Virus record (IMG/VR): IMGVR_UViG_3300047491_001207
Location: 1-35,000 of that record
DNA: 35,000 nt
Source: a virus
Reading direction: 5' to 3' (one strand)
The notes below the pieces were generated by a model. That model had not been told where the DNA came from and did not search any database. It saw nothing but the letters and a program-made list of their open reading frames with translations. Made by a program: the position numbers and the translations under genes. Shown one piece after another: positions 1,965-23,804 of this stretch (the first letter of the stretch is position 1; the number at the start of each line of letters is the position of its first letter).

Positions 1965-2096
1965 GGGGAAGTATGCGAATAAAAAACAAAGAATATAGTC
2001 GTAATACTCCTACGGAGAACTGGTTATGTTTTCAGTAAAGGTACAGCAATTTGTGTTGAAAACAAATGTTTGTGGGTTCAACTCCCGCCTTCCCCA
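1965..2096 (+). tRNA. tRNA, anticodon UGA (Ser-type), with a 57-nt insert in the D-loop
   Basis: Acceptor 1965-1971 (GGGGAAG) pairs with 2089-2095. The D-stem is TGC 1974-1976 with GCA 2046-2048. The anticodon stem is 2050-2054 with 2062-2066, with loop GTTGAAA (anticodon UGA at 2057-2059). The T-arm is 2072-2088 with loop TTCAACT. The discriminator is A2096, followed by CC. The gene spans 132 nt; removing about 1977-2033 leaves a normal 75-nt tRNA. The variable loop is only 5 nt, unlike ordinary class II tRNA-Ser, so the charged amino acid is uncertain. The insert holds a small hairpin (2007-2017) and ends in TGTTTTCA (2027-2034), exactly complementary to 2057-2064 across the anticodon. A paralogue with the same design lies at 3890-4024. 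Confidence 0.7.
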
Positions 2097-2123
2097 CCGA
2101 TGGTCATTTTTTGTACTTTTTAG

Positions 2124-2131
2124 TATTTATA
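2124..2131 (+). promoter_or_regulatory. GTATTTATAT-type box upstream of the first GIY-YIG gene
   Basis: AGTATTTATATT ends about 16 nt before the ATG at 2148. It is the same box seen before 3086, 7779, 13953, 20747, 21747 and 25583, so it is inferred to be a phage (late) promoter element. Confidence 0.45.
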
Positions 2132-2147
2132 TTAAAAAGTATATAAT

Positions 2148-2819
2148 ATGGCTAGAATTGAAAAAAAATATCATTTCATATATAAAACAACATGTATGTT
2201 AAATGATAGGTATTATTTTGGAATGCATTCTACCGACAATATAAATGACGGATATATGGGTTCTGGAAGAAGATTAAAACGTTCATTGAAAAAATATGGT
2301 AAAGAAAATCATATCGTTGAAATTATTGAATTTTTACCTGACAGAAAATCACTTTTTCTTAGAGAAAAAGAAATTGTTAGCTTAAATGAAATTGCTAAAA
2401 AAAATTGCATGAATTTAAAAGTTGGCGGTGATGGTGGGTTCTCTAGTGAACAGCATAGAATAAAATTTTTTGAAAAAGCAAGTGAATATTCAAAAATTAA
2501 TTCATTACTTGCTGTTAAACGTAAAGTCGAAATCCGTAAAAACAATCCAAATTGGCAGTTGGATTTAAATCGTAAGACTGGTGAAGGTGTTAGAAAATAT
2601 TATCGTGATAATAATATTGTTGGTAGTTTTTATGGAAAAAAACACAGTGAACTATCTAAGGAAAAAATCAGTAAAACAAATAAAATAGTTCTTGCTGGAA
2701 CAGGTAATTCACAATATGGCACACGTTGGATTACAAACGATATTGATAATAAAAAAATAATGAAAAATGATAATCTGCCAGATGGTTGGCATTATGGTAG
2801 AATTATAAAGAAATTATAA
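2148..2819 (+). CDS. GIY-YIG homing endonuclease with NUMOD3 motif, copy 1
   Basis: A 223-residue protein of the phage Seg-like GIY-YIG family. The N-terminal nuclease domain (about residues 8-100) carries FIY at 10-12 and YFG at 23-25 as the GIY-YIG pair, the GSGRRLKRSLKKYG helix with the conserved Arg, and a Glu in the REKEIV segment that matches the catalytic Glu. A NUMOD3 DNA-binding motif (FYGKKHSELSKEKISKTNK) follows at about 160-180. The C-terminal segment (RWITND...GWHYGR) is typical of free-standing phage endonucleases. It should cut a DNA target and spread by repair. It starts about 50 nt after a tRNA 3' end, under its own GTATTTATAT box. It is clearly paralogous to the gene at 3086-3754. 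YFG instead of YIG is a mild deviation. Confidence 0.93.
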   Translation: MARIEKKYHFIYKTTCMLNDRYYFGMHSTDNINDGYMGSGRRLKRSLKKYGKENHIVEIIEFLPDRKSLFLREKEIVSLNEIAKKNCMNLKVGGDGGFSSEQHRIKFFEKASEYSKINSLLAVKRKVEIRKNNPNWQLDLNRKTGEGVRKYYRDNNIVGSFYGKKHSELSKEKISKTNKIVLAGTGNSQYGTRWITNDIDNKKIMKNDNLPDGWHYGRIIKKL

Positions 2820-2840
2820 AGGAAACTGATTGTTATTTCA

Positions 2841-2913
2841 GTACAATTAACTCAGTGGGTAGAGTATTTGCCTATCAAGCGAAACGCCGTTGGTTCAAAT
2901 CCAGCATTGTAAA
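2841..2913 (+). tRNA. tRNA with anticodon AUC (decodes GAU, Asp)
   Basis: A 73-nt cloverleaf. Acceptor 2841-2847 pairs with 2906-2912, with a G-A mismatch at the terminal pair. The D-stem is ACTC 2850-2853 with GAGT 2862-2865. The anticodon stem is 2867-2871 with 2879-2883, with loop CTATCAA (anticodon ATC at 2874-2876). There is a 5-nt variable loop, and the T-arm is 2889-2905 with loop TTCAAAT. CCA is not encoded. A at wobble position 34 is odd for Asp, which normally uses GUC. A flanking inverted repeat (2830-2836 with 2921-2927) would clamp the precursor. Confidence 0.8.
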
Positions 2914-2953
2914 ACAATAGATAACAAACGAAATATCCTTTTTAAAAATATAT

Positions 2954-3037
2954 TGTGGGATAGTGTAATTGGTAACATATTGGGCTCATAACCCAAAGAC
3001 AGTAATGCTAGTGAAGGTTCGATTCCTTCTCCCGCTA
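2954..3037 (+). tRNA. tRNA-Met-like (anticodon CAU) with a 16-nt variable region
   Basis: Acceptor 2954-2960 pairs with 3030-3036, with a T-T mismatch at pair 1-72 as seen in spirit in initiator tRNAs. The D-stem is 2963-2966 with 2975-2978. The anticodon stem is TTGGG 2980-2984 with CCCAA 2992-2996, with loop CTCATAA (CAU at 2987-2989). The T-arm is 3013-3029 with loop TTCGATT. The discriminator is A3037, then CC. The variable region (2997-3012) is 16 nt, far longer than usual for Met or Ile2. Initiator, elongator and Ile2 (lysidine) identities cannot be separated by eye. Confidence 0.8.
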
Positions 3038-3061
3038 CCGGGGTCATTTTTGAAATTACAA

Positions 3062-3071
3062 GTATTTATAT
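3062..3071 (+). promoter_or_regulatory. GTATTTATAT box upstream of the second GIY-YIG gene
   Basis: GTATTTATAT lies about 15 nt before the ATG at 3086, in the same arrangement as in front of the paralogue at 2148. Both leaders also share GGTCATTTTT just after the preceding tRNA. Confidence 0.45.
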
Positions 3072-3085
3072 GAAAAATATAAATC

Positions 3086-3754
3086 ATGAGTAATTACAAT
3101 GACAACAAAAAGTATCATTTCATATATAAGACAACTAATATTCTAAATGGTTCATATTATATTGGAATGCATTCCACAAATAATATCAGCGATGGGTATT
3201 TGGGAAGTGGAAAAAGAATAAAACGTTCTTTGAAGAAATATGGTAAAGATAACTTCAAATTTGAAATTTTAGAATTTACTGAAAATCGTAAAATGCTGAT
3301 TGAGCGAGAAATTGCTATAGTAAACTCCGATGTCTTGAAAGATAAACTATGTTTAAACTTGAAAGAAGGTGGTTGTGGTGGATTATGTAATGAAACACAT
3401 TCTAAAAATTTTCATGCTGCTGGTGGAAGAAAAGTACGTGAGTATTTTAGAGAAATTCACGCCAATAGAATGAAAAATGATGCTGAATATCATGAAAAAT
3501 GGAAAATTGCGTATAAAAATGCAATTGGCTCTCGTAAAGGAGACACTAATCCATTTTATGGTAGAAAACATGATGATGAGTGGAAAAAAACAATTAGCGA
3601 TATTATGAGAGTAAAACAATCAGGAACTAATAATTCTCAATATAATACTTGTTGGATTACTAATGAAATTGAGAATAGGAAAATAAAAAAAGATGAAATA
3701 GTTCCAGTTGGTTGGAGATTCGGTAGAAATTTGAAGATATTGAAAAAACAATGA
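3086..3754 (+). CDS. GIY-YIG homing endonuclease with NUMOD3 motif, copy 2
   Basis: A 222-residue paralogue of the protein at 2148-2819. The nuclease domain has FIY and a canonical YIG (KTTNILNGSYYIGMHST), the GSGKRIKRSLKKYG helix, and a Glu in the LIEREIAIV helix. A NUMOD3-like motif (FYGRKHDDEWKKTISDIMR) sits at about 155-175, and the C-terminal CWITNE...GWRFGR segment matches copy 1. It begins 46 nt after the CC end of the tRNA-Met-like gene, in a leader that resembles that of copy 1. The two therefore look like duplicates of one mobile cassette (leader plus endonuclease) inserted at two tRNA 3' ends. The intervening segment between nuclease and C-terminus differs more than the ends, consistent with different DNA targets. 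It ends in TGA. Confidence 0.93.
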   Translation: MSNYNDNKKYHFIYKTTNILNGSYYIGMHSTNNISDGYLGSGKRIKRSLKKYGKDNFKFEILEFTENRKMLIEREIAIVNSDVLKDKLCLNLKEGGCGGLCNETHSKNFHAAGGRKVREYFREIHANRMKNDAEYHEKWKIAYKNAIGSRKGDTNPFYGRKHDDEWKKTISDIMRVKQSGTNNSQYNTCWITNEIENRKIKKDEIVPVGWRFGRNLKILKKQ

Positions 3755-3889
3755 ATTAGTAAGCGATTCAGTAATGGAGAGAGTAATTGCTGCAAATTGT
3801 TGAACATGAAAAGGCTGGTAGACCGTAAATTATTTCTCAGTAGTGCCTCACATAACCTCAATGACAATTACTAATTTATTCAAACAAAT
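3755..3889 (+). other. Gene-free segment with a tRNA-sized inverted-repeat element
   Basis: There is no ORF here. AGTAATTG (3782-3789) pairs exactly with CAATTACT (3865-3872), enclosing a 91-nt unit, close to class II tRNA size, with an internal GGTAGAC reminiscent of a Leu D-arm. I could not find a T-arm or a convincing anticodon arm, so I do not call it a tRNA. It may be a decayed tRNA or a small structured RNA. A TTCAGTAA element precedes it at 3766. Confidence 0.3.
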
Positions 3890-4024
3890 GGAGAAGTAGC
3901 AAAGTGATAAACAAGAAATACTATCTCAATGCTCTTGAAAAAAGAGAACTAATGGTGTTTTCAGTAAAGGTAATGCAATTGTGTTGAAAACAATCTATCG
4001 GTGGTTCAAATCCATCCTTCTCCG
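3890..4024 (+). tRNA. tRNA, anticodon UGA (Ser-type), with a 61-nt insert in the D-loop
   Basis: Acceptor GGAGAAG 3890-3896 pairs with CTTCTCC 4017-4023. The D-stem is GCA 3899-3901 with TGC 3974-3976. The anticodon stem is 3978-3982 with 3990-3994, with loop GTTGAAA (UGA at 3985-3987). The variable loop is 5 nt. The T-arm is 4000-4016 with loop TTCAAAT. The discriminator is G4024, the base typical of tRNA-Ser. The span is 135 nt; without about 3902-3962 it is a normal 74 nt. The D-stem covaries with the twin at 1965 (GCA/TGC against TGC/GCA), supporting this fold. The insert has a hairpin (CTCTT/AAGAG, 3932-3946) and ends in TGTTTTCA (3956-3963), complementary to 3985-3992 over the anticodon. 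Confidence 0.7.
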
Positions 4025-4055
4025 CATTATGCTCAGTCAAGCCTCTTATTCGAAA

Positions 4056-4192
4056 GAATAATGTAACTGGGCGAAAGACCTGATTCCCGCTAGTCCCTGA
4101 AGAAATTCAAACTGGTGGGTACGGTTTAAAAATATTAGGGAAAACGTAAAGTGTTTACAGTAACATCGGTTCGACTCCGATATTGTTCGCCA
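4056..4192 (+). ncRNA. tRNA-like RNA with encoded CCA and a structured body
   Basis: GAATAAT (4056-4062) pairs with ATTGTTC (4182-4188) as an acceptor-like stem. A clear T-arm (ATCGG TTCGACT CCGAT, 4165-4181) precedes it, and G plus CCA (4189-4192) follows. Between them there is no normal D or anticodon arm. Instead there is a long hairpin: CCCGCTAGT (4086-4094) with ACTGGTGGG (4111-4119), capped by TGAA-GAAA-TTCA (4098-4109), a GNRA loop. A GTGTTTACAGTAA element (4151-4163) resembles the end of the inserts in the UGA tRNAs. It could be a tRNA carrying an inserted RNA element, or a non-tRNA RNA that borrows the tRNA 3' end. The 5' boundary is uncertain because 4056 also lies in another hairpin (TTATTC GAAA GAATAA, 4047-4061). 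Confidence 0.45.
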
Positions 4193-4198
4193 AAAAAT

Positions 4199-4242
4199 GA
4201 GCGATTAGCCAAGTGGTTAAGGCACAAGTCCGTTAAACTTGC
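4199..4242 (+). ncRNA. tRNA-Asn-like 5' half (D-arm and anticodon arm), no matching 3' half found
   Basis: The 5' strand GAGCGAT and TA are followed by a canonical D-arm (GCC 4208-4210, AAGTGGTTAA, GGC 4221-4223). A perfect anticodon arm then follows: CAAGT 4225-4229, loop CCGTTAA, ACTTG 4237-4241. The anticodon reads GUU (Asn), but position 33 is C instead of the near-universal U. No T-arm or clear acceptor 3' strand follows in the next 600 nt; the best is AGCGAT with GTCGCT at 4363-4368, only 6 bp. Options are a split or interrupted tRNA, a pseudogene, or the tRNA-mimic domain of a larger RNA. Confidence 0.5.
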
Positions 4243-4720
4243 AAAAGAAAAGAATACTTTAAAATTGTTCCCAAAACTTATTGATTTTTGGCTGTTGGTG
4301 TCAGTGTTTTTTTAAAAAATGGGGCGCACCACCTAACATTTGATGGTTAAGAATGGTTTTTCGTCGCTAACGAGTGACTTTTTTTCAAAAAAGATGAATT
4401 TTAACTATGAAAAAGGAGTAGATAGTGAAGCCGGGAGAGCGTTAACTCAAGGGTGCACACTAAGGATAAGCAGCAATGCTCAACTCTCTAATGGTGTGTG
4501 AAGCACATATATTGTCGCCCGAAAGGATAAAAGAATGGCGTATGTGGTTAGCAAGATTCCTGATAAAAGCTATTGAGTAGTTAATTTTTTTTACTGAAGA
4601 ACTTGTTGTGTATGCAGTAAATTGAAATTTGTCGCCCATGATGGTGGCGACACAAACTTACAAGATACAACAGAACTTCTTCTCAATATTAGAGAAGCAG
4701 TGTTTTTCTGAAAAAACAAG
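4243..4720 (+). ncRNA. Structured non-coding region, candidate RNA gene(s)
   Basis: There is no ORF, but there is dense RNA structure. CACAC (4456-4460) pairs with GTGTG (4494-4498) around the GNRA hairpin AGCA-GCAA-TGCT (4469-4480). CACATA plus CGCC (4504-4509, 4516-4519) pair with GGCG plus TATGTG (4537-4546). A long imperfect arm joins 4596-4611 with 4665-4682, topped by GTCGCC/GGCGAC (4631-4636 with 4646-4651). CTTCTC/GAGAAG (4679-4684 with 4692-4697) competes with the base of that arm. The region sits directly upstream of a Ro60-like gene, the usual place for bacterial Y RNAs. No family can be assigned by eye. Confidence 0.5.
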
Positions 4721-4721
4721 T

Positions 4722-4774
4722 GGGCGGGGAACTCGACGTGGAAACGTGTCGAAGTACTTCGTCCATTTTTTTTT
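4722..4774 (+). terminator. Strong hairpin plus T-run ending the RNA island
   Basis: The outer stem 4722-4729 pairs with 4757-4764. An A-A mismatch, 2 bp and a bulged A follow, then the inner stem TCGACGTG (4733-4740) pairs with CGTGTCGA (4745-4752), closed by a GAAA loop (4741-4744). Nine T residues follow from 4766. It reads as an intrinsic terminator for the tRNA/ncRNA transcript. The GC-rich, GNRA-capped stem could also be the 3' domain of the RNA itself. Confidence 0.75.
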
Positions 4775-4854
4775 GTAGTTATTGTAACATTTTTGAATTC
4801 AATTCGTATAATTGATTCTGAATAAAATAAATTGAATTAAATTAATATTGTAGT

Positions 4855-6480
4855 ATGGAAAAATTGGTATTGACACAAAACATGGTTACATCAGTCAAGA
4901 AAGCATTGATTGATGGATTAACTATTGCTTCTGGTGCTAAGAGCGTTGCTACTTATTACCATAGCAAAGATGAACAGATGAAGGCAATACAAGCACAAAT
5001 TAAAGGCATGTATGGTCTTTCGAAAGAACTCCCCTTGATTGTTGCAACACAAAAAGGAGCAACAGGACGATTTGTATCTGAAGTATTATTAAATGAATTT
5101 AAAAATACTTTAAAGGGTGGCGCATGTAATATTGTCAATCCGATTGATTGGTATGACAATGGTTTGGGTGATAAGGTATTGTTAAATGCTTTGAGAAATT
5201 TATCTGAGAATGGTTTACCTTATGTTCTCCGTTTATATGTTGATTTGAAAAACGCCAAAGTTAATAATGAAAGGTCGAGGAAAATCTTTCTTGGTTTCAT
5301 TTGGGGTCAGCCAAATCTTGAATTTTATTCGATGAAATATCGTAATAAAATTGCCGATGTATTGAAGCATATTTATGGTCAAAAGAAAACATCAATATTG
5401 CTCTCAATTGCTCAAAAAGCCGTTAATGGTGGCGAATTTATTGCTACAGATAAGGAAATGAAGATTGCCAATGATTTGTTGCTTAAATATTATGATGGTA
5501 ATGCGATTAAAGCATTTAAATTGTTATTGTTCTTATTTAAAAAGGATAAGGGTGTTAACTATGATGCTGCTGAATTTTCATTGTTGAGCGAATACCAGAA
5601 AGCTAAGGTAAATATTAGTTTAGCAAAGCTTGTACCTGAAGAAGTATTGATTGGTTTGATTTCGAATAAAAATCATCCTCAATATAGTACAATGTGGTCA
5701 ACTGATGCACAAAAGGCTGCAACGAAGGCAATGATTCGTAAAAATGTTGAAGTTACGTCGGTAAATCAACAAGTACGTCAAACTAAATCAACAGCTAAGT
5801 TAGGTGTTGAAAAAGAGGTTGAACTTGAAAAAGCTACCGATTTCTTGGCACTTTACAAAACTGCATATGAAAATGGTTGGACTGATGAATTGAAAATTGC
5901 AATTGGTAAACTCGCAGTTAAGAAGAAAATTCAAGGATTCTTATATCAGAACATCGGTATTATCGTTGACGATAGTGCTTCTATGACTGGTAACAAGAAT
6001 GAGTCTAAGAATACACCGAGAGCAATTGCCGAATTTACTGGTTTAGTACTTCAAAATTCTGCAAGGAATTCTGTTGTTGCACGTACAAGTGAATTTAGTA
6101 CAGATTTAGCATCAGCATTTATCCAATTATTGAAAGATGAAAATGATAGTCAATATGATGCTATTTTCATCATTACCGATGGTTATGAAAATGCTTACGA
6201 TGGATTGACGAATGAAGTTATCTCAATCTGGCAAGCTGAAACTGGTAGAAGTCTACCAATATTCCAGATTTCGCCTATTACTAGTGCCGAAATGGGTGCT
6301 AATGTGAGAAAGATTGGTGATAGTGTTGTTCCTATGTCGGTGAATAATCCATCTGCAATTCAGCCACAAATCAATGCGAGATTGCTTGAAATTGACGCTA
6401 AACTTTGGTTGGAAAATGAAGTACGTCAATTGGAATCAATTTCGATTACAAGAAAAGCAAAAATTAGTGTAAACGTTTAA
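4855..6480 (+). CDS. Ro60-like (TROVE-type) helical-repeat plus vWA protein
   Basis: 541 residues. About residues 1-330 are all-helical and repeat-like, and about 362-541 form a von Willebrand A domain with the MIDAS motif DDSASM (D372, S374, S376) and a later acidic ITDG (D442). This order, a helical ring domain followed by vWA with a DxSASM MIDAS, is that of Ro60/Rsr, the ring protein that binds Y RNAs and the 3' ends of misfolded RNAs. The overall length is also in the Ro range. The helical part is too divergent to confirm TROVE by eye, so another vWA chaperone is possible. The gene follows a tRNA/structured-RNA island and is followed after 11 nt by an ARPP-1-like gene, and both contexts suit RNA surveillance. 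No strong promoter is visible between 4775 and 4854; TTG 4782 with TATAATTG 4807-4814 is a weak candidate (22-nt spacer). Confidence 0.7.
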   Translation: MEKLVLTQNMVTSVKKALIDGLTIASGAKSVATYYHSKDEQMKAIQAQIKGMYGLSKELPLIVATQKGATGRFVSEVLLNEFKNTLKGGACNIVNPIDWYDNGLGDKVLLNALRNLSENGLPYVLRLYVDLKNAKVNNERSRKIFLGFIWGQPNLEFYSMKYRNKIADVLKHIYGQKKTSILLSIAQKAVNGGEFIATDKEMKIANDLLLKYYDGNAIKAFKLLLFLFKKDKGVNYDAAEFSLLSEYQKAKVNISLAKLVPEEVLIGLISNKNHPQYSTMWSTDAQKAATKAMIRKNVEVTSVNQQVRQTKSTAKLGVEKEVELEKATDFLALYKTAYENGWTDELKIAIGKLAVKKKIQGFLYQNIGIIVDDSASMTGNKNESKNTPRAIAEFTGLVLQNSARNSVVARTSEFSTDLASAFIQLLKDENDSQYDAIFIITDGYENAYDGLTNEVISIWQAETGRSLPIFQISPITSAEMGANVRKIGDSVVPMSVNNPSAIQPQINARLLEIDAKLWLENEVRQLESISITRKAKISVNV

Positions 6481-6491
6481 AATTTGAACAT

Positions 6492-7589
6492 ATGAATACT
6501 AGAGATTTTTCAGAATTATTAAAAGGTTGTCGTCCTGTTAAGGATAGTGATGGCAACATCGTAGTTCAGTCAATAATGAACATGCAGATTGTATGTTTAA
6601 CTACTGATAATGAGTTTTCGTTGGATAGTCGTTTCGGTAATCCTTTAACTGCTTTGAAAGCAGGTAACTCTTCATATGGTCAAATTAATTTTACTAATAA
6701 AGAGAATAAGGAAATTATCGTTCCTACTCAAATGGCTGTTATGACCAAACAAACTGCCCAAAACCACGGTATGACTAAAGCAGGTTATATTCCCGCTAAA
6801 GGAAATATTACATTTAGGGATGCTGGTTGTGTTCAAGGTTCTCAAGGCGGTCATTTCAGTGACACTCAGGAGTTCCGTATGTTGCCAATATCAATGCGTG
6901 AAATGGTACTTGATACTATTGGTACTCCGGAATCATATCAAAGAATTTATCCTGCAATTAATAAATTGGGTGTTGACACACAATCAAATTCAGGTAGTTA
7001 TTTGAATGTTTATTTCGATAAATACGATAAGAAACTTGAACAGTTCATCGCACATTTTGAACGTCCAAAAAACCTTATTGGTATTGTTGTGTTGGTTGAT
7101 GACGAAATTGTTGGTATCGATAAGTTTCCATCATTCACATATGCAGAACAGGTTTGGGATATGATGATTCGTGACTGTTATGGGTCACTTGCAATTATTT
7201 CTGAATTGAAATCTAAGAAATCACGTGCAGTATTTGCTGAATCATATAATGAAGTGAAGAAACATCGTGAAGATGTTGTAACTATGCTTGAAAAAGCGTT
7301 GTTAAAGACAAAACAGAAAATGACTGCAAGTGTTCAGGAAAAGATTCAAGAATTGCTTGATTTAACTTTCGATGCAACTCCTGATACTGTAGGTAACCCA
7401 ACAGCAGGTAGTCATGCACCAAAATCATATGTCCTTAAAACTGAAGGATATGTTGGTCAGGTATTAACTGAAAACGAATACAACCATATGGTTAGTATCG
7501 TTAAAAGGGAAAGATTTGACCCAACTGCATTTCGTCAGGTAAACGAGTTAAGAAATAAAGCTCGTAAACAAGACAGATTCACATTATAA
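6492..7589 (+). CDS. ARPP-1-like domain protein, partner of the Ro-like protein
   Basis: 365 residues, cytoplasmic, with no signal or membrane segment. The pattern resembles the ARPP-1 (ARG and rhodanese-phosphatase-superfamily associated) family. A segment near residues 76-115 has the shape of the VLVPAGS...VSC(V)E block (EIIVPTQMAVMTKQTAQ...AKGNITFRDAGCVQ), where the Cys stands near a QGSQGGHFSD stretch. A later stretch near 190-240 (NLIGIVVLVDDEIVGIDKF...QVWDMMIRDCYGSLAI) matches the conserved GxVvxinGkvvGlDlF...lwpkLlrsYalda block. ARPP-1 has no proven activity that I know of and was described from gene neighbourhoods with RNA-repair and ADP-ribose-processing proteins. The C-terminal 100 residues are helical and not recognised. 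It is translated from the same message as the Ro-like gene and closed by the terminator at 7611. Confidence 0.6.
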   Translation: MNTRDFSELLKGCRPVKDSDGNIVVQSIMNMQIVCLTTDNEFSLDSRFGNPLTALKAGNSSYGQINFTNKENKEIIVPTQMAVMTKQTAQNHGMTKAGYIPAKGNITFRDAGCVQGSQGGHFSDTQEFRMLPISMREMVLDTIGTPESYQRIYPAINKLGVDTQSNSGSYLNVYFDKYDKKLEQFIAHFERPKNLIGIVVLVDDEIVGIDKFPSFTYAEQVWDMMIRDCYGSLAIISELKSKKSRAVFAESYNEVKKHREDVVTMLEKALLKTKQKMTASVQEKIQELLDLTFDATPDTVGNPTAGSHAPKSYVLKTEGYVGQVLTENEYNHMVSIVKRERFDPTAFRQVNELRNKARKQDRFTL

Positions 7590-7610
7590 TAATAGCGTGA
7601 ATAAAAAAAC

Positions 7611-7643
7611 AACCCTGTAGGAAATTTTCTTACAGGGTTTTTT
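7611..7643 (+). terminator. Rho-independent terminator after the Ro-like/ARPP-1 operon
   Basis: AACCCTGTA (7611-7619) pairs with TACAGGGTT (7631-7639), 9 bp, followed by a T-run. It separates the RNA-maintenance genes from the fibre locus. Confidence 0.9.
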
Positions 7644-7778: not shown

Positions 7779-8903
7779 ATGCCATTTTTTGCAAGACCTA
7801 ACCTAGATAATGAACAATTTAAGCAAATTCAGGGTACTACATTAACATTATCGGGTCAAACCCAAATAGCTACAGTTAGTGGATTTACATTAACTGATGG
7901 TACTGGTAATAATATACCTGTTATTGCTACTGGTGGTACTAATTATGATGTTTTAACCTATCTTAATGGTAAAATTTTATTAGAACCTGTTAGTGGTATT
8001 ACTGGTAATGCATATAGCGGTAATTCACCAACGACATGTACTGTCGGTGGTTTAATTTCTGGAACTAGTATTAACGGATGTAGTATATCGTGTATTATTC
8101 AAGATATGGTAGCACCTCCGCTAAACCCGACAATAACATCACCGTCGATTGGTTTTACAATATCTCCTTCAAATATTTTATATGAAGTTGGCTCAACAAT
8201 TAGCGTAACTGGATGCACTGTTTTTGATAGAGGCTGTATTACACCAGCATATTGTGGAACATGTAGTAAAAGAAGTGGTTCTGCAGTATGTTATGAATAT
8301 AATGTGTGGGGAGTTCCCACATGTACTGTTAGCTCATTACCAAATAATTCAACATCTTTTACTCCATATCAAGCTGCACCGGGAAGCGTAAATACTTTAA
8401 CTAGTAGAACATGGTATTCTTCTGGTTGTACTCCCGCATATAATAGTCAAGGTAGTGAATATAGTGCAGCATTATCATCAGGTTGTACACCAACATCAAC
8501 AATAACGATAACTGGTATATATCCATATTACTATGGTAAAGTTGCTAGTGGAAATGTTGCTGCCGGGTTAAACAGACCATCTGCAACTGCTGCATTGATT
8601 ACTGGTGGTACTAAGGTTGTATGCAGTAGTAATAATACAATTTGCCTTAATTTTAATAGTACTTCTGATGATTACATTTGGTTTGCAACACCCGCAGCCA
8701 GCATTACTAAAACATGTTGGTACGTTGATTCTGCAAACAATGGAATAATTAGTGGTGGCACTACAGTTGGTGGTAATTTATTTCCAGCTCCCGTTACTGT
8801 TAACGGTGTTGCAAATGTGTGTTGGAGTGGGCAATCATATAAGCTATACATTAGTAATTATCAAACCACATCAAATAAAATAATTGAACTAAGAAATAAT
8901 TAA
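7779..8903 (+). CDS. Modular tail fibre/adhesin protein, short, type-A anchor
   Basis: 374 residues, low in charge, rich in Gly, Ser, Thr, Asn and Cys. Residues 1-40 hold the anchor shared with the genes at 13953, 21747 and 25583 (RPNL, then F-x-Q and LTLSG-x-TQI). From about residue 85 to the end is a domain (VGGLISG, ...PTITSPSIGFTISPS, paired Cys near GCITPAYCGTCSKRSGS) that recurs as the C-terminal part of the next gene. It is therefore a two-module fibre: anchor plus a Cys-bearing tip domain. There is no signal peptide or membrane segment. The start codon has no SD site but follows AAAAAATCTAAATTAATTAAA, as is normal for Bacteroidota phages. It heads a three-gene unit with 8911 and 10781. 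The exact receptor role is inferred from composition and position. Confidence 0.75.
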   Translation: MPFFARPNLDNEQFKQIQGTTLTLSGQTQIATVSGFTLTDGTGNNIPVIATGGTNYDVLTYLNGKILLEPVSGITGNAYSGNSPTTCTVGGLISGTSINGCSISCIIQDMVAPPLNPTITSPSIGFTISPSNILYEVGSTISVTGCTVFDRGCITPAYCGTCSKRSGSAVCYEYNVWGVPTCTVSSLPNNSTSFTPYQAAPGSVNTLTSRTWYSSGCTPAYNSQGSEYSAALSSGCTPTSTITITGIYPYYYGKVASGNVAAGLNRPSATAALITGGTKVVCSSNNTICLNFNSTSDDYIWFATPAASITKTCWYVDSANNGIISGGTTVGGNLFPAPVTVNGVANVCWSGQSYKLYISNYQTTSNKIIELRNN

Positions 8904-21746: not shown

Positions 21747-23804
21747 ATGGCATACGATAATAGACCAAATTTAAATTGTAGACAATTCGACCAAAAGGGT
21801 AGTGATTATTTATTTTTAGCCGGACAAAACTGTATTTGTAGTGGTGGAACAATAAGTTCAGATAATGGATATCAAGTTTCAGGTATCACTGTATTTGATA
21901 CCGGGATGGTATCAAGTTCAATTCAAATTGGCTGTAATGCAATTTCATCTGGAATTGCTGCCACTGTTGTTGGTACAGGCGCACTCGCATCAGGATTAAC
22001 CTCAATTTCAATCGGGTGCAATAGTAAATCATGTGGTAATGGTAGTATTTCAATAGGAACAGTATCAAATGCACACGCTCTTTGTGGTATCTCAATCGGA
22101 TGTGGTGGTAATGCTTGTTGCGATTATTCAATAAGTATTGGTGCTAATTCAATTTCATATGGGTCTGGTGGTATTGCTGTTGGTAAGATAACTAAATCAT
22201 ATGAAAATAGTATTTCAATTGGAAATAATTCGTGTGCAACAAATATTAATGGGATTGCTATTGGCGAAAATAGTATAGCAATTAACAGTTCAAGTATTGC
22301 TATAGGTTATAATACCCTTGCATACTGTACTTGTTCACATGTCATTGGAAATTATATATGTAATAATATTAAAGATTCTCTGGGTTTAGGCTGGTATAGT
22401 GGTGCTACATATCAAACTCCTTCAATTTTATTTTCCGATACATTATCATATTTTTATGGAAAGGGTGATGCTAAAGTAGGGTTCGGAGTTTGTAACCCAA
22501 CTGCAAGGGTTGATATATATACCACTACAACATGTGGATTTAAATTGGTTGATGGTAATCAAGGTGCTGGAAGAATATTAACTAGTGATACTAATGGTTA
22601 TGGAAAATGGTGTGCTGTAAGTTTAGGTATTACGACAGCTAATAATGGTTTAAATGTTATTGGTAGTAATGTACGATTAGGCGGTGCATTAACTGGAAAC
22701 ACTTCTATTAGTGCAAATTATACTCTCACAATTGGCTCATGTGCAAAATTAAACACTGAATGTGGTTATCAAATTAGCGGTAATACAATACTATGCACAG
22801 CTAAAAGTGATATCACCAGTGTTTTTATGGGATATAATGCAGGCTCAAATTCAGTTAATTCATATAATATTGGAATTGGTTATAGTACGTTAAAATGCAA
22901 TCCCACTGGAAATAATAATATCGCTGCTGGTTTTAAAGCATTGTGTTGTAATACTTGTGGAAGTCATAATATTGCTTTTGGTAATTCCGCACTTCAGGTA
23001 AATACTAGTGGGTGCAATAATATTGCAATCGGTAGCTCTTCATTATATACCAATTCTGTTGGGTATAGTAATGTTGCTGTTGGTGGTGGTTCACTCCAAA
23101 GCAATACTGGTGGTACTCAAAATGTTGCTATTGGTGCATCGGCTTTAGTTCAAAATACCAAAGGTAATGACAATACTGCTGTTGGTGCACTTGCATTAAT
23201 GCTTAATACTTGTGGTTGTCACAATGTTGGTATTGGATATGAATCTGTATGGAAAAACACTACTGGTTGTGAAAATATTGGTATTGGATTATTTAGTTTA
23301 TCGTGTAGCCAAACTGGAAGTAAAAATGTTGCTGTTGGTATTTGTGCCGGATTTAGTAGTGTTGGTAGTAATAATGTTTATCTGGGAAATAGTGCAGGTT
23401 TTTATGAAACTGGCTCAAATAGACTACACATTGGTAATTGTTGGTGCTGTTCATTAATATATGGTGAGTTTGATAATAAAATGGTGAAAATTGATGGCAC
23501 ATTGTGTGCTAGTTCGAATATGTGTGCTACTAATTTTATTTTGACTTCCGATGAAAGATATAAAACAAATGTTTCATCAATTTCAATTGCCCCCGTAAAT
23601 ATTGACTATAAACAATTTGAAATGTGTGATGAACCCAATCAATTGAGATATGGTGTTTTAGCTCAAGAATTACATTTAGTAAATCCTGAATTAACTAGAA
23701 TTAATTCTTGTGGATACTTAAGTGTAGCATATATTGACTTATTAATTAAAGAAGTCGCATATTTAAAATATAAAATATCTGAATTAGAAAAGAAAATTCA
23801 ATAA
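21747..23804 (+). CDS. Tail fibre with C-terminal S74 intramolecular chaperone
   Basis: 685 residues. Type-A anchor at 1-35 (RPNLNCRQFDQ...LFLAGQNCI). YadA-head-like 14-residue-like repeats at about 50-195 (SISIGCNS, GGIAVGK, SISIGNNS). A linker with a LGG-LTG module follows, then 17-residue repeats at about 350-550. The end is a Peptidase_S74 domain (about 598-685): SDERYKTNV with the catalytic Ser-Lys pair (S601, K606), YGVLAQEL, GYLSVAYIDL, and a final coiled coil (IKEVAYLKYKISELEKKI). In this family the domain assembles the trimer and then cuts itself off before the Ser. Cleavage would release about 85 residues. The stop codon overlaps the next start (TAATG), implying translational coupling. 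Confidence 0.92.
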   Translation: MAYDNRPNLNCRQFDQKGSDYLFLAGQNCICSGGTISSDNGYQVSGITVFDTGMVSSSIQIGCNAISSGIAATVVGTGALASGLTSISIGCNSKSCGNGSISIGTVSNAHALCGISIGCGGNACCDYSISIGANSISYGSGGIAVGKITKSYENSISIGNNSCATNINGIAIGENSIAINSSSIAIGYNTLAYCTCSHVIGNYICNNIKDSLGLGWYSGATYQTPSILFSDTLSYFYGKGDAKVGFGVCNPTARVDIYTTTTCGFKLVDGNQGAGRILTSDTNGYGKWCAVSLGITTANNGLNVIGSNVRLGGALTGNTSISANYTLTIGSCAKLNTECGYQISGNTILCTAKSDITSVFMGYNAGSNSVNSYNIGIGYSTLKCNPTGNNNIAAGFKALCCNTCGSHNIAFGNSALQVNTSGCNNIAIGSSSLYTNSVGYSNVAVGGGSLQSNTGGTQNVAIGASALVQNTKGNDNTAVGALALMLNTCGCHNVGIGYESVWKNTTGCENIGIGLFSLSCSQTGSKNVAVGICAGFSSVGSNNVYLGNSAGFYETGSNRLHIGNCWCCSLIYGEFDNKMVKIDGTLCASSNMCATNFILTSDERYKTNVSSISIAPVNIDYKQFEMCDEPNQLRYGVLAQELHLVNPELTRINSCGYLSVAYIDLLIKEVAYLKYKISELEKKIQ

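What the first reader, a model, noticed from the sequence alone, without database searches (positions are those of the whole stretch)
4199..7643. Phage Ro60-like/ARPP-1 operon directly downstream of a tRNA and structured-RNA island
Seen: a helical-repeat plus vWA protein with a DxSASM MIDAS, an ARPP-1-like partner 11 nt later, a common terminator, and directly upstream an ORF-free region full of tRNA-like and GNRA-capped structures. Known: Ro60/Rsr proteins bind Y RNAs, and bacterial Y RNAs (YrlA) mimic tRNA and are usually encoded beside rsr; ARPP-1 was described from RNA-repair neighbourhoods. Inference: the phage carries its own Ro RNP or RNA-repair module, perhaps protecting phage tRNAs from host anticodon or tRNA nucleases.
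Basis: partly seen in the sequence, partly recalled or inferred. Interest (0 to 1): 0.82.

Follow-up and report, generated by a model that had tools for sequence, protein, structure and literature searches.

The report
Phage Ro protein with tRNA-mimic RNA array
A group of very large uncultured phages carries a distant version of the RNA-binding Ro60 protein, paired with an ARPP-1 protein, next to a row of small RNAs that look like tRNAs opened at different places but share one stem motif, which suggests a phage-made RNA-protein machine dealing with tRNAs or with the enzymes that attack them.

Summary
ORF 4855-6480 has a full-length Ro60 fold: the top 11 Foldseek and top 10 VIA matches in the PDB are all Ro60/Rsr/TROVE, although the profile libraries tried do not find it. 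ORF 6492-7589 is ARPP-1. The pair recurs in related jumbo phages and, at 28-31% identity, in a 462-kb phage. Upstream, 1965-4682 in the window, lies an array of structured RNAs sharing a two-strand stem motif (169 copies in 47 arrays, 4 elsewhere). The stem joins a tRNA-like body at the acceptor end, in the D-loop, or at the variable region of a circularly permuted tRNA; covariation supports all three bodies. Anticodons vary (least in the D-loop type), U33 is often lost and some acceptor arms are closed, so many look like mimics rather than working tRNAs. The acceptor type recurs 1.4 kb upstream of Ro in the 462-kb phage. The plan resembles bacterial Y RNAs, but YrlA is not matched. Best reading: a phage Ro RNP with Y-RNA-like tRNA mimics; binding and function are inferred. 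One phage keeps a permuted RNA but lacks Ro and ARPP-1 at this locus.

The parts
1965..2096 (+). Type B element 1: tRNA-like RNA with the shared stem motif inserted in its D-loop (motif strand at 2018)
   Evidence: A5 row 1, L001 5111-5242, minus 3146; motif hit
2148..2819 (+). GIY-YIG/NUMOD3 homing endonuclease ORF inside the array
2818..2941 (+). Type P element: tRNA-like body (ARAGORN 'tRNA-Asp(atc)' 2841-2913) whose acceptor end runs into the shared stem
   Evidence: R1 E=1.6e-25; this copy is in the model
2954..3039 (+). Ordinary tRNA-Met (CAU)
3086..3754 (+). GIY-YIG homing endonuclease ORF inside the array
3890..4024 (+). Type B element 2: tRNA-like RNA, D-loop insertion of the shared motif (motif strand at 3947)
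4138..4272 (+). Type C element: circularly permuted tRNA-like RNA (T-arm and 3' acceptor strand first, then 5' acceptor strand, D-arm, anticodon arm) enclosed by the shared stem
4596..4682 (+). Type A element: hairpin with a slightly changed motif and no tRNA-like body
   Evidence: covariation not tested
4784..4812 (+). Promoter-like site before the Ro-like gene (GTAACA-17-TATAAT); a CGTATAATTG-like box stands at a similar place in several of the 8 loci printed
   Evidence: sites of this score are not above chance in number
4855..6480 (+). Ro60-like protein (helical N-terminal part plus C-terminal vWA with DxSxSM)
6492..7589 (+). ARPP-1 domain protein
   Evidence: PF20208, E=3.2e-14, 53.4 bits, cut-off 27
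7611..7639 (+). Terminator-like hairpin after ARPP-1

Best explanation
This is a phage-encoded Ro ribonucleoprotein module. A highly diverged Ro60-fold protein and its operon partner ARPP-1 work with an array of several small RNAs (five in the window) encoded just upstream. These RNAs carry one conserved two-strand stem motif (outer helix, AAC(U/G) internal-loop strand, inner helix, WCAGUA), which I infer is the dock for the Ro-like protein. Most present a tRNA-like body, attached at different points of the tRNA fold: acceptor end, D-loop, or variable region of a circularly permuted tRNA. Held on Ro, the bodies would mimic tRNAs towards an enzyme that handles tRNAs. With their varied anticodon loops they most likely act as baits for host tRNA-cleaving nucleases; alternatively they tether such an enzyme to Ro. 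Shown here: the predicted protein fold, the gene pair, the RNA secondary structures and their shared motif, and conservation of the neighbourhood. Inferred: expression, binding of the RNAs to Ro, the part played by ARPP-1, and the bait function.
For: Ro fold: AlphaFold model (pLDDT 74.5, pTM 0.67); top 11 Foldseek hits all Ro60/Rsr/TROVE, best E=5.4e-6, next unrelated 0.067; VIA top 10 all Ro60, Z 12.1-14.5, within residues 12-530 of the model, next a lone vWA at 10.6. Pair: side by side in LR756500.1 at 27.8% and 31.3% identity. RNAs: type C, 40 sequences, 97.9% of cells paired, 21 of 35 pairs with a double change, 215 double-change cells against 62.0 in shuffles; all 7 pairs of the permuted acceptor stem have double changes. 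Type B: 35 sequences, 98.1% paired, 148 against 38.6. Type P: 25 sequences, 94.6% paired, 56 against 17.1. Occurrence at E<=1e-12: type P in 40 of 47 loci, type C in 46 of 47, one each (models built from 25 and 40 of these). Motif: 169 copies on the + strand of 47 upstream stretches (138.6 kb), 1 on the - strand, 4 elsewhere (471.8 kb), mean 0.4 in 30 first-order random sets. Mimicry: U33 in 26 of 40 type C and 24 of 35 type B, against 42 of 42 array tRNA-Met; 14 triplets among 40 type C; 6 of 40 type C acceptor arms closed by a 5-nt cap without CCA. Distance: R1, built without it, finds a type P RNA 1.4 kb upstream of Ro in LR756500.1 at 88.7 bits, E=4.5e-17; the next of 15 hits in that record has 52.9 bits.
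Against: No binding or expression data. TROVE and YrlA profiles do not match. One 140.8-kb phage record (G007) has a type C RNA (124.9 bits) and a second motif copy between genes like those that flank the window's locus (by eye), but neither Ro nor ARPP-1 there, and no Ro in the record by sequence; the record may be a fragment. Type B anticodons are mostly UGA (20 of 35), so diversity is not equal across types, and U33 is kept in 22 of 25 type P. In LR756500.1 three ORFs lie between the type P RNA and Ro, and the two further RNAs there score no higher with R1 than tRNAs do (43.2 and 25.2 bits). RNA_ligase genes in 7 of 8 phage records suit a ligation reading as well. The motif helices of type P barely vary and give no covariation; those of type A were not tested.
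Confidence: 0.6

Rival explanations
1. The shared motif is a small unknown intron or processing element. The D-loop and variable-region types are intron-containing tRNA genes, and the permuted and acceptor types are permuted precursors that are cut, circularised or ligated into working tRNAs, perhaps with phage RNA ligases.
For: Removing the motif from type B leaves a plausible D-arm (by eye); the motif has its strands in both orders, as in permuted introns; RNA_ligase over cut-off in 7 of 8 phage records; many type C copies keep CCA after the acceptor strand.
Against: The motif also encloses hairpins with no tRNA body; U33 is absent in 14 of 40 type C and 11 of 35 type B (two of the 35 have 6-nt loops); 6 of 40 type C acceptor arms are closed by a 5-nt cap; type P has no CCA at the acceptor end and runs on into the motif; a possible guide helix in type B shows no covariation.
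Confidence: 0.17
2. The RNAs are adaptors that tether Ro to a nuclease (PNPase, as YrlA does in RYPER) for decay or quality control of structured RNA, not nuclease baits.
For: YrlA does this with a tRNA-like domain (PMC8394870, passages).
Against: The varied anticodon arms have no counterpart in YrlA, whose likeness is to the D, T and acceptor arms (same passages); the two-gene operon holds no recognised nuclease.
Confidence: 0.2
3. Ro/ARPP-1 and the RNA array are neighbours without a working link; the RNAs serve translation or regulation on their own.
For: G007 keeps a type C RNA and a second motif copy without Ro and ARPP-1 at this site; the Ro operon may have its own promoter.
Against: A type P RNA stays near Ro in a phage whose Ro is only 28% identical; of 73 stretches found by RNA patterns alone 51 hold Ro, and the other 22 hold at most 1807 nt beyond the element.
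Confidence: 0.1
4. The protein is a vWA co-chaperone (MoxR-vWA type) unrelated to RNA.
For: Such pairs occur in jumbo phages (PMC7824862, passage).
Against: Full-length Ro60 matches stand above the lone-vWA matches; the operon partner is ARPP-1, not a MoxR ATPase.
Confidence: 0.02

Closest known systems
Ro60/Rsr (TROVE) proteins, phage examples included: Thermus phage phiLo Ro60 (PDB 9l5y), Gordonia phage VanLee 'Ro-like RNA binding protein', ROT/TROVE proteins of some jumbo phages (PMC7824862, passage), Ro60-related ORF of Vibrio phage pir03 (PMC7765460, passages)
   Same: Full-length fold: helical N-terminal part plus vWA with DxSxS; phage-borne
   Different: 12-14% identity to solved Ro60; no TROVE profile match; operon partner ARPP-1
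Bacterial Y RNA YrlA (RF02553)
   Same: Stem formed by the 5' and 3' ends plus a tRNA-like domain, encoded beside a Ro homologue (types P and C)
   Different: No YrlA match at E<=10; several RNAs per array; complete anticodon arm; type B carries the stem as an internal hairpin
Listeria phage CKA15: three highly transcribed regions near an Rsr-like gene (PMC12282133, passages)
   Same: The authors suggest a phage Rsr with Y RNAs encoded within 2 kb
   Different: One of several suggestions there, without structure evidence. In phage P100, which I used as a related record, R1 hits lie only at 124-129 kb with at most 45.1 bits; I did not locate the Rsr-like gene in P100, and TROVE does not match it
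ARPP (PF20208) of ARG-centred ADP-ribose conflict systems (PMC9503650, passages)
   Same: Pfam match above cut-off
   Different: Partner here is a Ro-like protein; that pairing is not among the contexts in the passages read
Circularly permuted tRNA genes of algae and archaea (recalled)
   Same: 3' half encoded before the 5' half
   Different: Here some are closed at the acceptor end, U33 is often lost, and the RNA is enclosed by a conserved stem motif

Membership tests
Ro60/Rsr (TROVE) | Helical-repeat N-terminal part followed by vWA with MIDAS DxSxS, over the full length | tested here: met
   (predicted model; TM-scores 0.27-0.41, so ring geometry is not shown); DxSxSM invariant
Ro60/Rsr (TROVE) | TROVE profile (PF05731) match by sequence | tested here: not met
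   (no match; the family rings in one of 14 control genomes)
Ro60/Rsr (TROVE) | Binds Y RNA and misfolded RNA | not testable with these tools
   Needs protein
Bacterial Y RNA (YrlA type) | 5'/3'-end stem plus tRNA-like domain | tested here: met
   Types C and P; type B has an internal stem instead, type A no tRNA-like domain
Bacterial Y RNA (YrlA type) | Match to Rfam YrlA RF02553 | tested here: not met
   (in one search no control genome passed the family's cut-off either)
Bacterial Y RNA (YrlA type) | Encoded beside a Ro homologue | tested here: met
   exception G007
ARPP-1 (PF20208) | Profile match above the curated cut-off | tested here: met
   53.4 against 27 bits; LR756500.1 partner 88.5 bits
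ARPP-1 (PF20208) | Absolutely conserved Cys and Gln | tested here: inconclusive
   C13, C113, C229 and several Gln are invariant in 26 sequences; which ones the paper means was not determined
Working (permuted or intron-containing) tRNA | Invariant U33 (recalled rule) and a maturable acceptor end | tested here: not met
   not met by many copies; other copies, and most of type P for U33, do meet one or both

The most novel reading that the evidence does not exclude
The array is an evolving display library: a phage Ro/ARPP-1 particle carries several tRNA mimics whose dock enters the tRNA fold at three different positions and whose anticodon loops are diversified between phages, so that together they bait, and perhaps with ARPP-1 disarm or repair, the tRNA-attacking effectors of many hosts. 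Building one docking stem into circular permutants of tRNA would be a new RNA design principle.
Probability: 0.3. Interest if true: 0.93.

Novelty: new variant of a known kind. Interest (0 to 1): 0.8.

Why it matters
What bacterial and phage Ro RNPs do is a long-open question. Comparative data here give covariation-backed RNAs, a candidate docking motif with natural variants, and a possibly enzymatic partner, so the RNA-binding rule and the purpose of the tRNA mimicry become directly testable. If the bait reading is right, it is a new kind of phage counter-defence against tRNA-cleaving immunity, and it would explain why homologous phage 'tRNA genes' change anticodon freely. It also warns that some annotated phage tRNAs, including odd suppressor-like ones, may not be tRNAs.

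Tried and rejected
Sequence searches with the Ro-like protein in Pfam, PHROGs, NCBIfam and PDB (phmmer and profile) gave no Ro or TROVE match; PADLOC was not tried. A genome-contig scan with A1 matched 24 stretches by pattern, none a relative. A viral scan with the LR756500.1 Ro-like protein found only a 100% copy. Rfam at gathering and relaxed thresholds found only tRNA matches of note. The ARPP-1 model was too poor to search (pLDDT 54.6). A competing 5' helix in type B was tested as a possible switch or guide helix: 79.2% paired, but covariation score below its shuffles. Paper searches: the listings for permuted phage tRNAs, tRNA decoys and huge-phage structured RNAs showed no title on this arrangement; apart from PMC7824862, I opened none of those papers. 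Searches on phage Ro/Y RNA and on ARPP gave the papers whose passages are cited; searches added none. Preprints and most subscription journals are not held.

Rows dropped: 47 upstream regions remain of 63 after removing 16 with identical last 400 nt. A3 uses 40 unique sequences of 42 regex hits (two of them with ends re-found). A4 uses 25 of 26 sequences with both ends found among 33 regex hits (L048, whose tRNA body lacks arms, left out; 7 without a matched end not aligned). A5 uses 35 of 46 rows (10 overlapping or false rows and the variable-region case L045 left out). A6 and A7 take 29 of 63 unique type A hairpins plus the window copy, and 28 of 63; their pairs were not counted. A1 and A2 use 26 sequences each (window included) of the 63 loci that hold Ro. 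In whole-record searches with R1 or R2 only the best 150 candidates per record were scored where there were more.
Full report
What was found. The window is part of a 246-kb IMG/VR virus record (L001, 100% match). Downstream of a DnaB-like helicase lie an RNA array (about 1965-4682), then the 541-aa protein 4855-6480, 11 nt later the 365-aa protein 6492-7589, and a terminator-like hairpin at 7611-7639.

The proteins. The 541-aa protein matches no family by sequence except a weak vWA hit (E=0.16); TROVE does not match. A scan of viral contigs gave 62 loci with relatives at 57-83% identity, the window's own record among them at 100%. In an alignment of 26 the DxSxSM and TDG residues are invariant. 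Its AlphaFold model (pLDDT 74.5, pTM 0.67) matches Ro60/Rsr/TROVE structures in the first 11 Foldseek ranks (best E=5.4e-6; next unrelated hit 0.067) and the first 10 VIA ranks (Z 12.1-14.5 within residues 12-530; next a lone vWA domain at 10.6). Two of the VIA rows were released in 2025: a Trove domain (9kop) and Ro60 of Thermus phage phiLo (9l5y). TM-scores are low (0.27-0.41), so the fold class is clear but the ring geometry is not. Among predicted viral structures the best match is 'Ro-like RNA binding protein' of Gordonia phage VanLee (E=7.4e-6). The second protein is ARPP-1 (PF20208, 53.4 bits, cut-off 27). Of 63 loci with Ro, 53 have ARPP-1 next; the other 10 break off inside Ro. In the 462-kb record LR756500.1 the Ro-like protein is 27.8% and ARPP-1 31.3% identical, the two ORFs 8 nt apart, ARPP-1 at 88.5 bits.

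The RNA array. I compared up to 3-4 kb upstream of Ro in 47 non-redundant loci. Several arrangements share one motif: an outer helix, an AAC(U/G) internal-loop strand, an inner helix, then WCAGUA on the 5' strand. Type P: the motif stem runs on from the acceptor end of a tRNA-like body; model R1 finds it in 40 of 47 loci at E<=1e-12 (built from 25 of them). Type C: the stem encloses a circularly permuted tRNA (T-arm and 3' acceptor strand, cap, 5' acceptor strand, D-arm, anticodon arm); model R2 finds it in 46 of 47 (built from 40 of the sequences). Both occur once per locus at that threshold. Type B: the motif is a hairpin inside the D-loop; 35 sequences from 29 loci were aligned. Type A: hairpins with the motif but no tRNA body, 71 found by regex in the 47 loci; the window's own copy has a G before CAGUA, was missed by that regex and was added. 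In L045 (7033-7173) the motif hairpin sits in the variable region of an unpermuted tRNA-like RNA, the linear counterpart of type C (by eye).

Structure evidence. Type C: 97.9% of 1400 cells paired; 215 double-change cells against a shuffled mean of 62.0; slid controls 38-55% paired; all 7 pairs of the permuted acceptor stem and all 5 of the anticodon stem have double changes. Type B: 98.1% paired, 148 against 38.6, though further pair types do not exceed shuffles (275 of 500 reach the observed value). Type P: 94.6% paired, 56 against 17.1; its motif helices barely vary and show no covariation. Shuffles do not keep relatedness, so these numbers are not probabilities. The 5'-strand motif occurs 169 times on the + strand of the 47 upstream stretches (1 to 6 per locus, mostly 3 to 5), once on the - strand, 4 times elsewhere in the same loci, and 0.4 times on average in first-order random sequence. 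In the window it occurs at 2018, 2824, 3947 and 4143 and nowhere else in 35 kb on either strand.

Mimics rather than tRNAs. The anticodon triplet differs from phage to phage in type C (14 triplets in 40) and type P (14 in 25), less in type B (9 in 35, UGA in 20). U33, which working tRNAs keep (recalled), is present in 26 of 40, 22 of 25 and 24 of 35, against 42 of 42 tRNA-Met in the same arrays; in other fetched loci, which include P100 and some array members, 64 of 68 ARAGORN tRNAs have it. Six of 40 type C acceptor arms end in a 5-nt cap without CCA. Type P has no CCA at the acceptor end and runs into the motif. Other copies do keep CCA and U33, so some could still be processed.

Link between RNAs and proteins. 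Model R1, built only from the close group, finds a type P RNA in LR756500.1 1.4 kb upstream of Ro at 88.7 bits (E=4.5e-17), with three ORFs between. It is the strongest of 15 hits in the 462-kb record; the next has 52.9 bits. Two D-loop-insertion RNAs can be read further upstream by eye, but their R1 scores (43.2 and 25.2 bits) are no higher than those of tRNAs. In six related phage records four have one R1 hit above 115 bits and two have none; every other listed hit is at most 55.9 bits. In Listeria phage P100 the best is 45.1. Starting from RNA patterns alone, 73 viral stretches matched; 51 hold Ro, and 22 do not but hold at most 1807 nt beyond the element. Six of the 22 were searched as whole records with the Ro protein: 2 have it, 4 do not. 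Of those 4, G011 has the RNA at the contig end, G008 shows no RNA by R1 or R2, G012 is only 8 kb, and G007 is a true exception: between a helicase gene and a homologue of the window's gene 7779-8903 (both by eye) it has two motif copies, one in a type C RNA of 124.9 bits, but no Ro or ARPP-1. Both proteins are thus missing together there, while part of the array remains. The other 16 of the 22 were not followed into whole records.

Interpretation. The plan (a Ro homologue beside RNAs with an end-to-end stem and a tRNA-like domain) is that of bacterial Ro/YrlA RNPs (PMC8394870, passages). YrlA itself is not matched, and its tRNA likeness is to the D, T and acceptor arms. The authors of PMC7790460 suggested that the YrlA tRNA-like domain could competitively inhibit an anticodon nuclease (passages). 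The varied anticodon loops here fit that idea better than a fixed tether does. Phage RNA ligases (PF09414 over cut-off in 7 of 8 records; RtcB in 0 of 8 over cut-off) fit a tRNA-damage setting. ARPP is described from ADP-ribose conflict systems with a proposed action on ribose (PMC9503650, passages), so its role here could be at damaged or ADP-ribosylated RNA ends; this is inference.

Known or new. Phage Ro proteins are known (PMC7824862 and PMC7765460 passages; PDB 9l5y), and PMC7765460 says that YrlA has been reported in several phages. A phage Rsr with nearby abundant RNAs has been suggested as a Y RNA system (PMC12282133, passages). In the listings and passages seen I did not find the Ro/ARPP-1 pair, an array of several tRNA mimics with one stem motif, or the permuted attachment. 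Hence 'new variant of a known kind', with a bolder reading kept open.

Noticed in passing
window 3800-3880 approx.: Another conserved element (GAACATGAAAAGGCTGG...GTAGTGCCTCACATAA...), start found by regex in 11 of 47 arrays, without the shared motif and without an Rfam match.
   Followed up: no
window 4028-4066 approx.: Small hairpin with AAGCCTCTT...TAATGTAAC between array elements; AAGCCTCTT found in 12 of 47 upstream stretches.
   Followed up: no
window 4285-4380 approx.: Conserved element after the permuted RNA (GGCTGTTGGTGTCAG...CCTAACATTTGATGGTTAAGAATGG); TAACATTTGA found in 38 of 47 upstream stretches.
   Followed up: partly
window 2148-2819 and 3086-3754; L007 and L013 between Ro and ARPP-1: The array and operon attract homing endonuclease genes (GIY-YIG here; HNH-type by eye between Ro and ARPP-1 in two relatives).
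   Followed up: partly
type C anticodon loops in L046, L048, L051, L056, L058, L060; type P in L004, L028, L031, L033, L047, L050: These tRNA-like bodies carry UUA or UCA anticodons that a tRNA finder may call stop-codon or selenocysteine tRNAs, which may mislead claims of genetic-code changes in phages.
   Followed up: partly
window 21747-23804: Tail-region protein with a weak likeness to trimeric autotransporters (YadA model, E=1.8e-8, 33.8 bits against a cut-off of 750).
   Followed up: no
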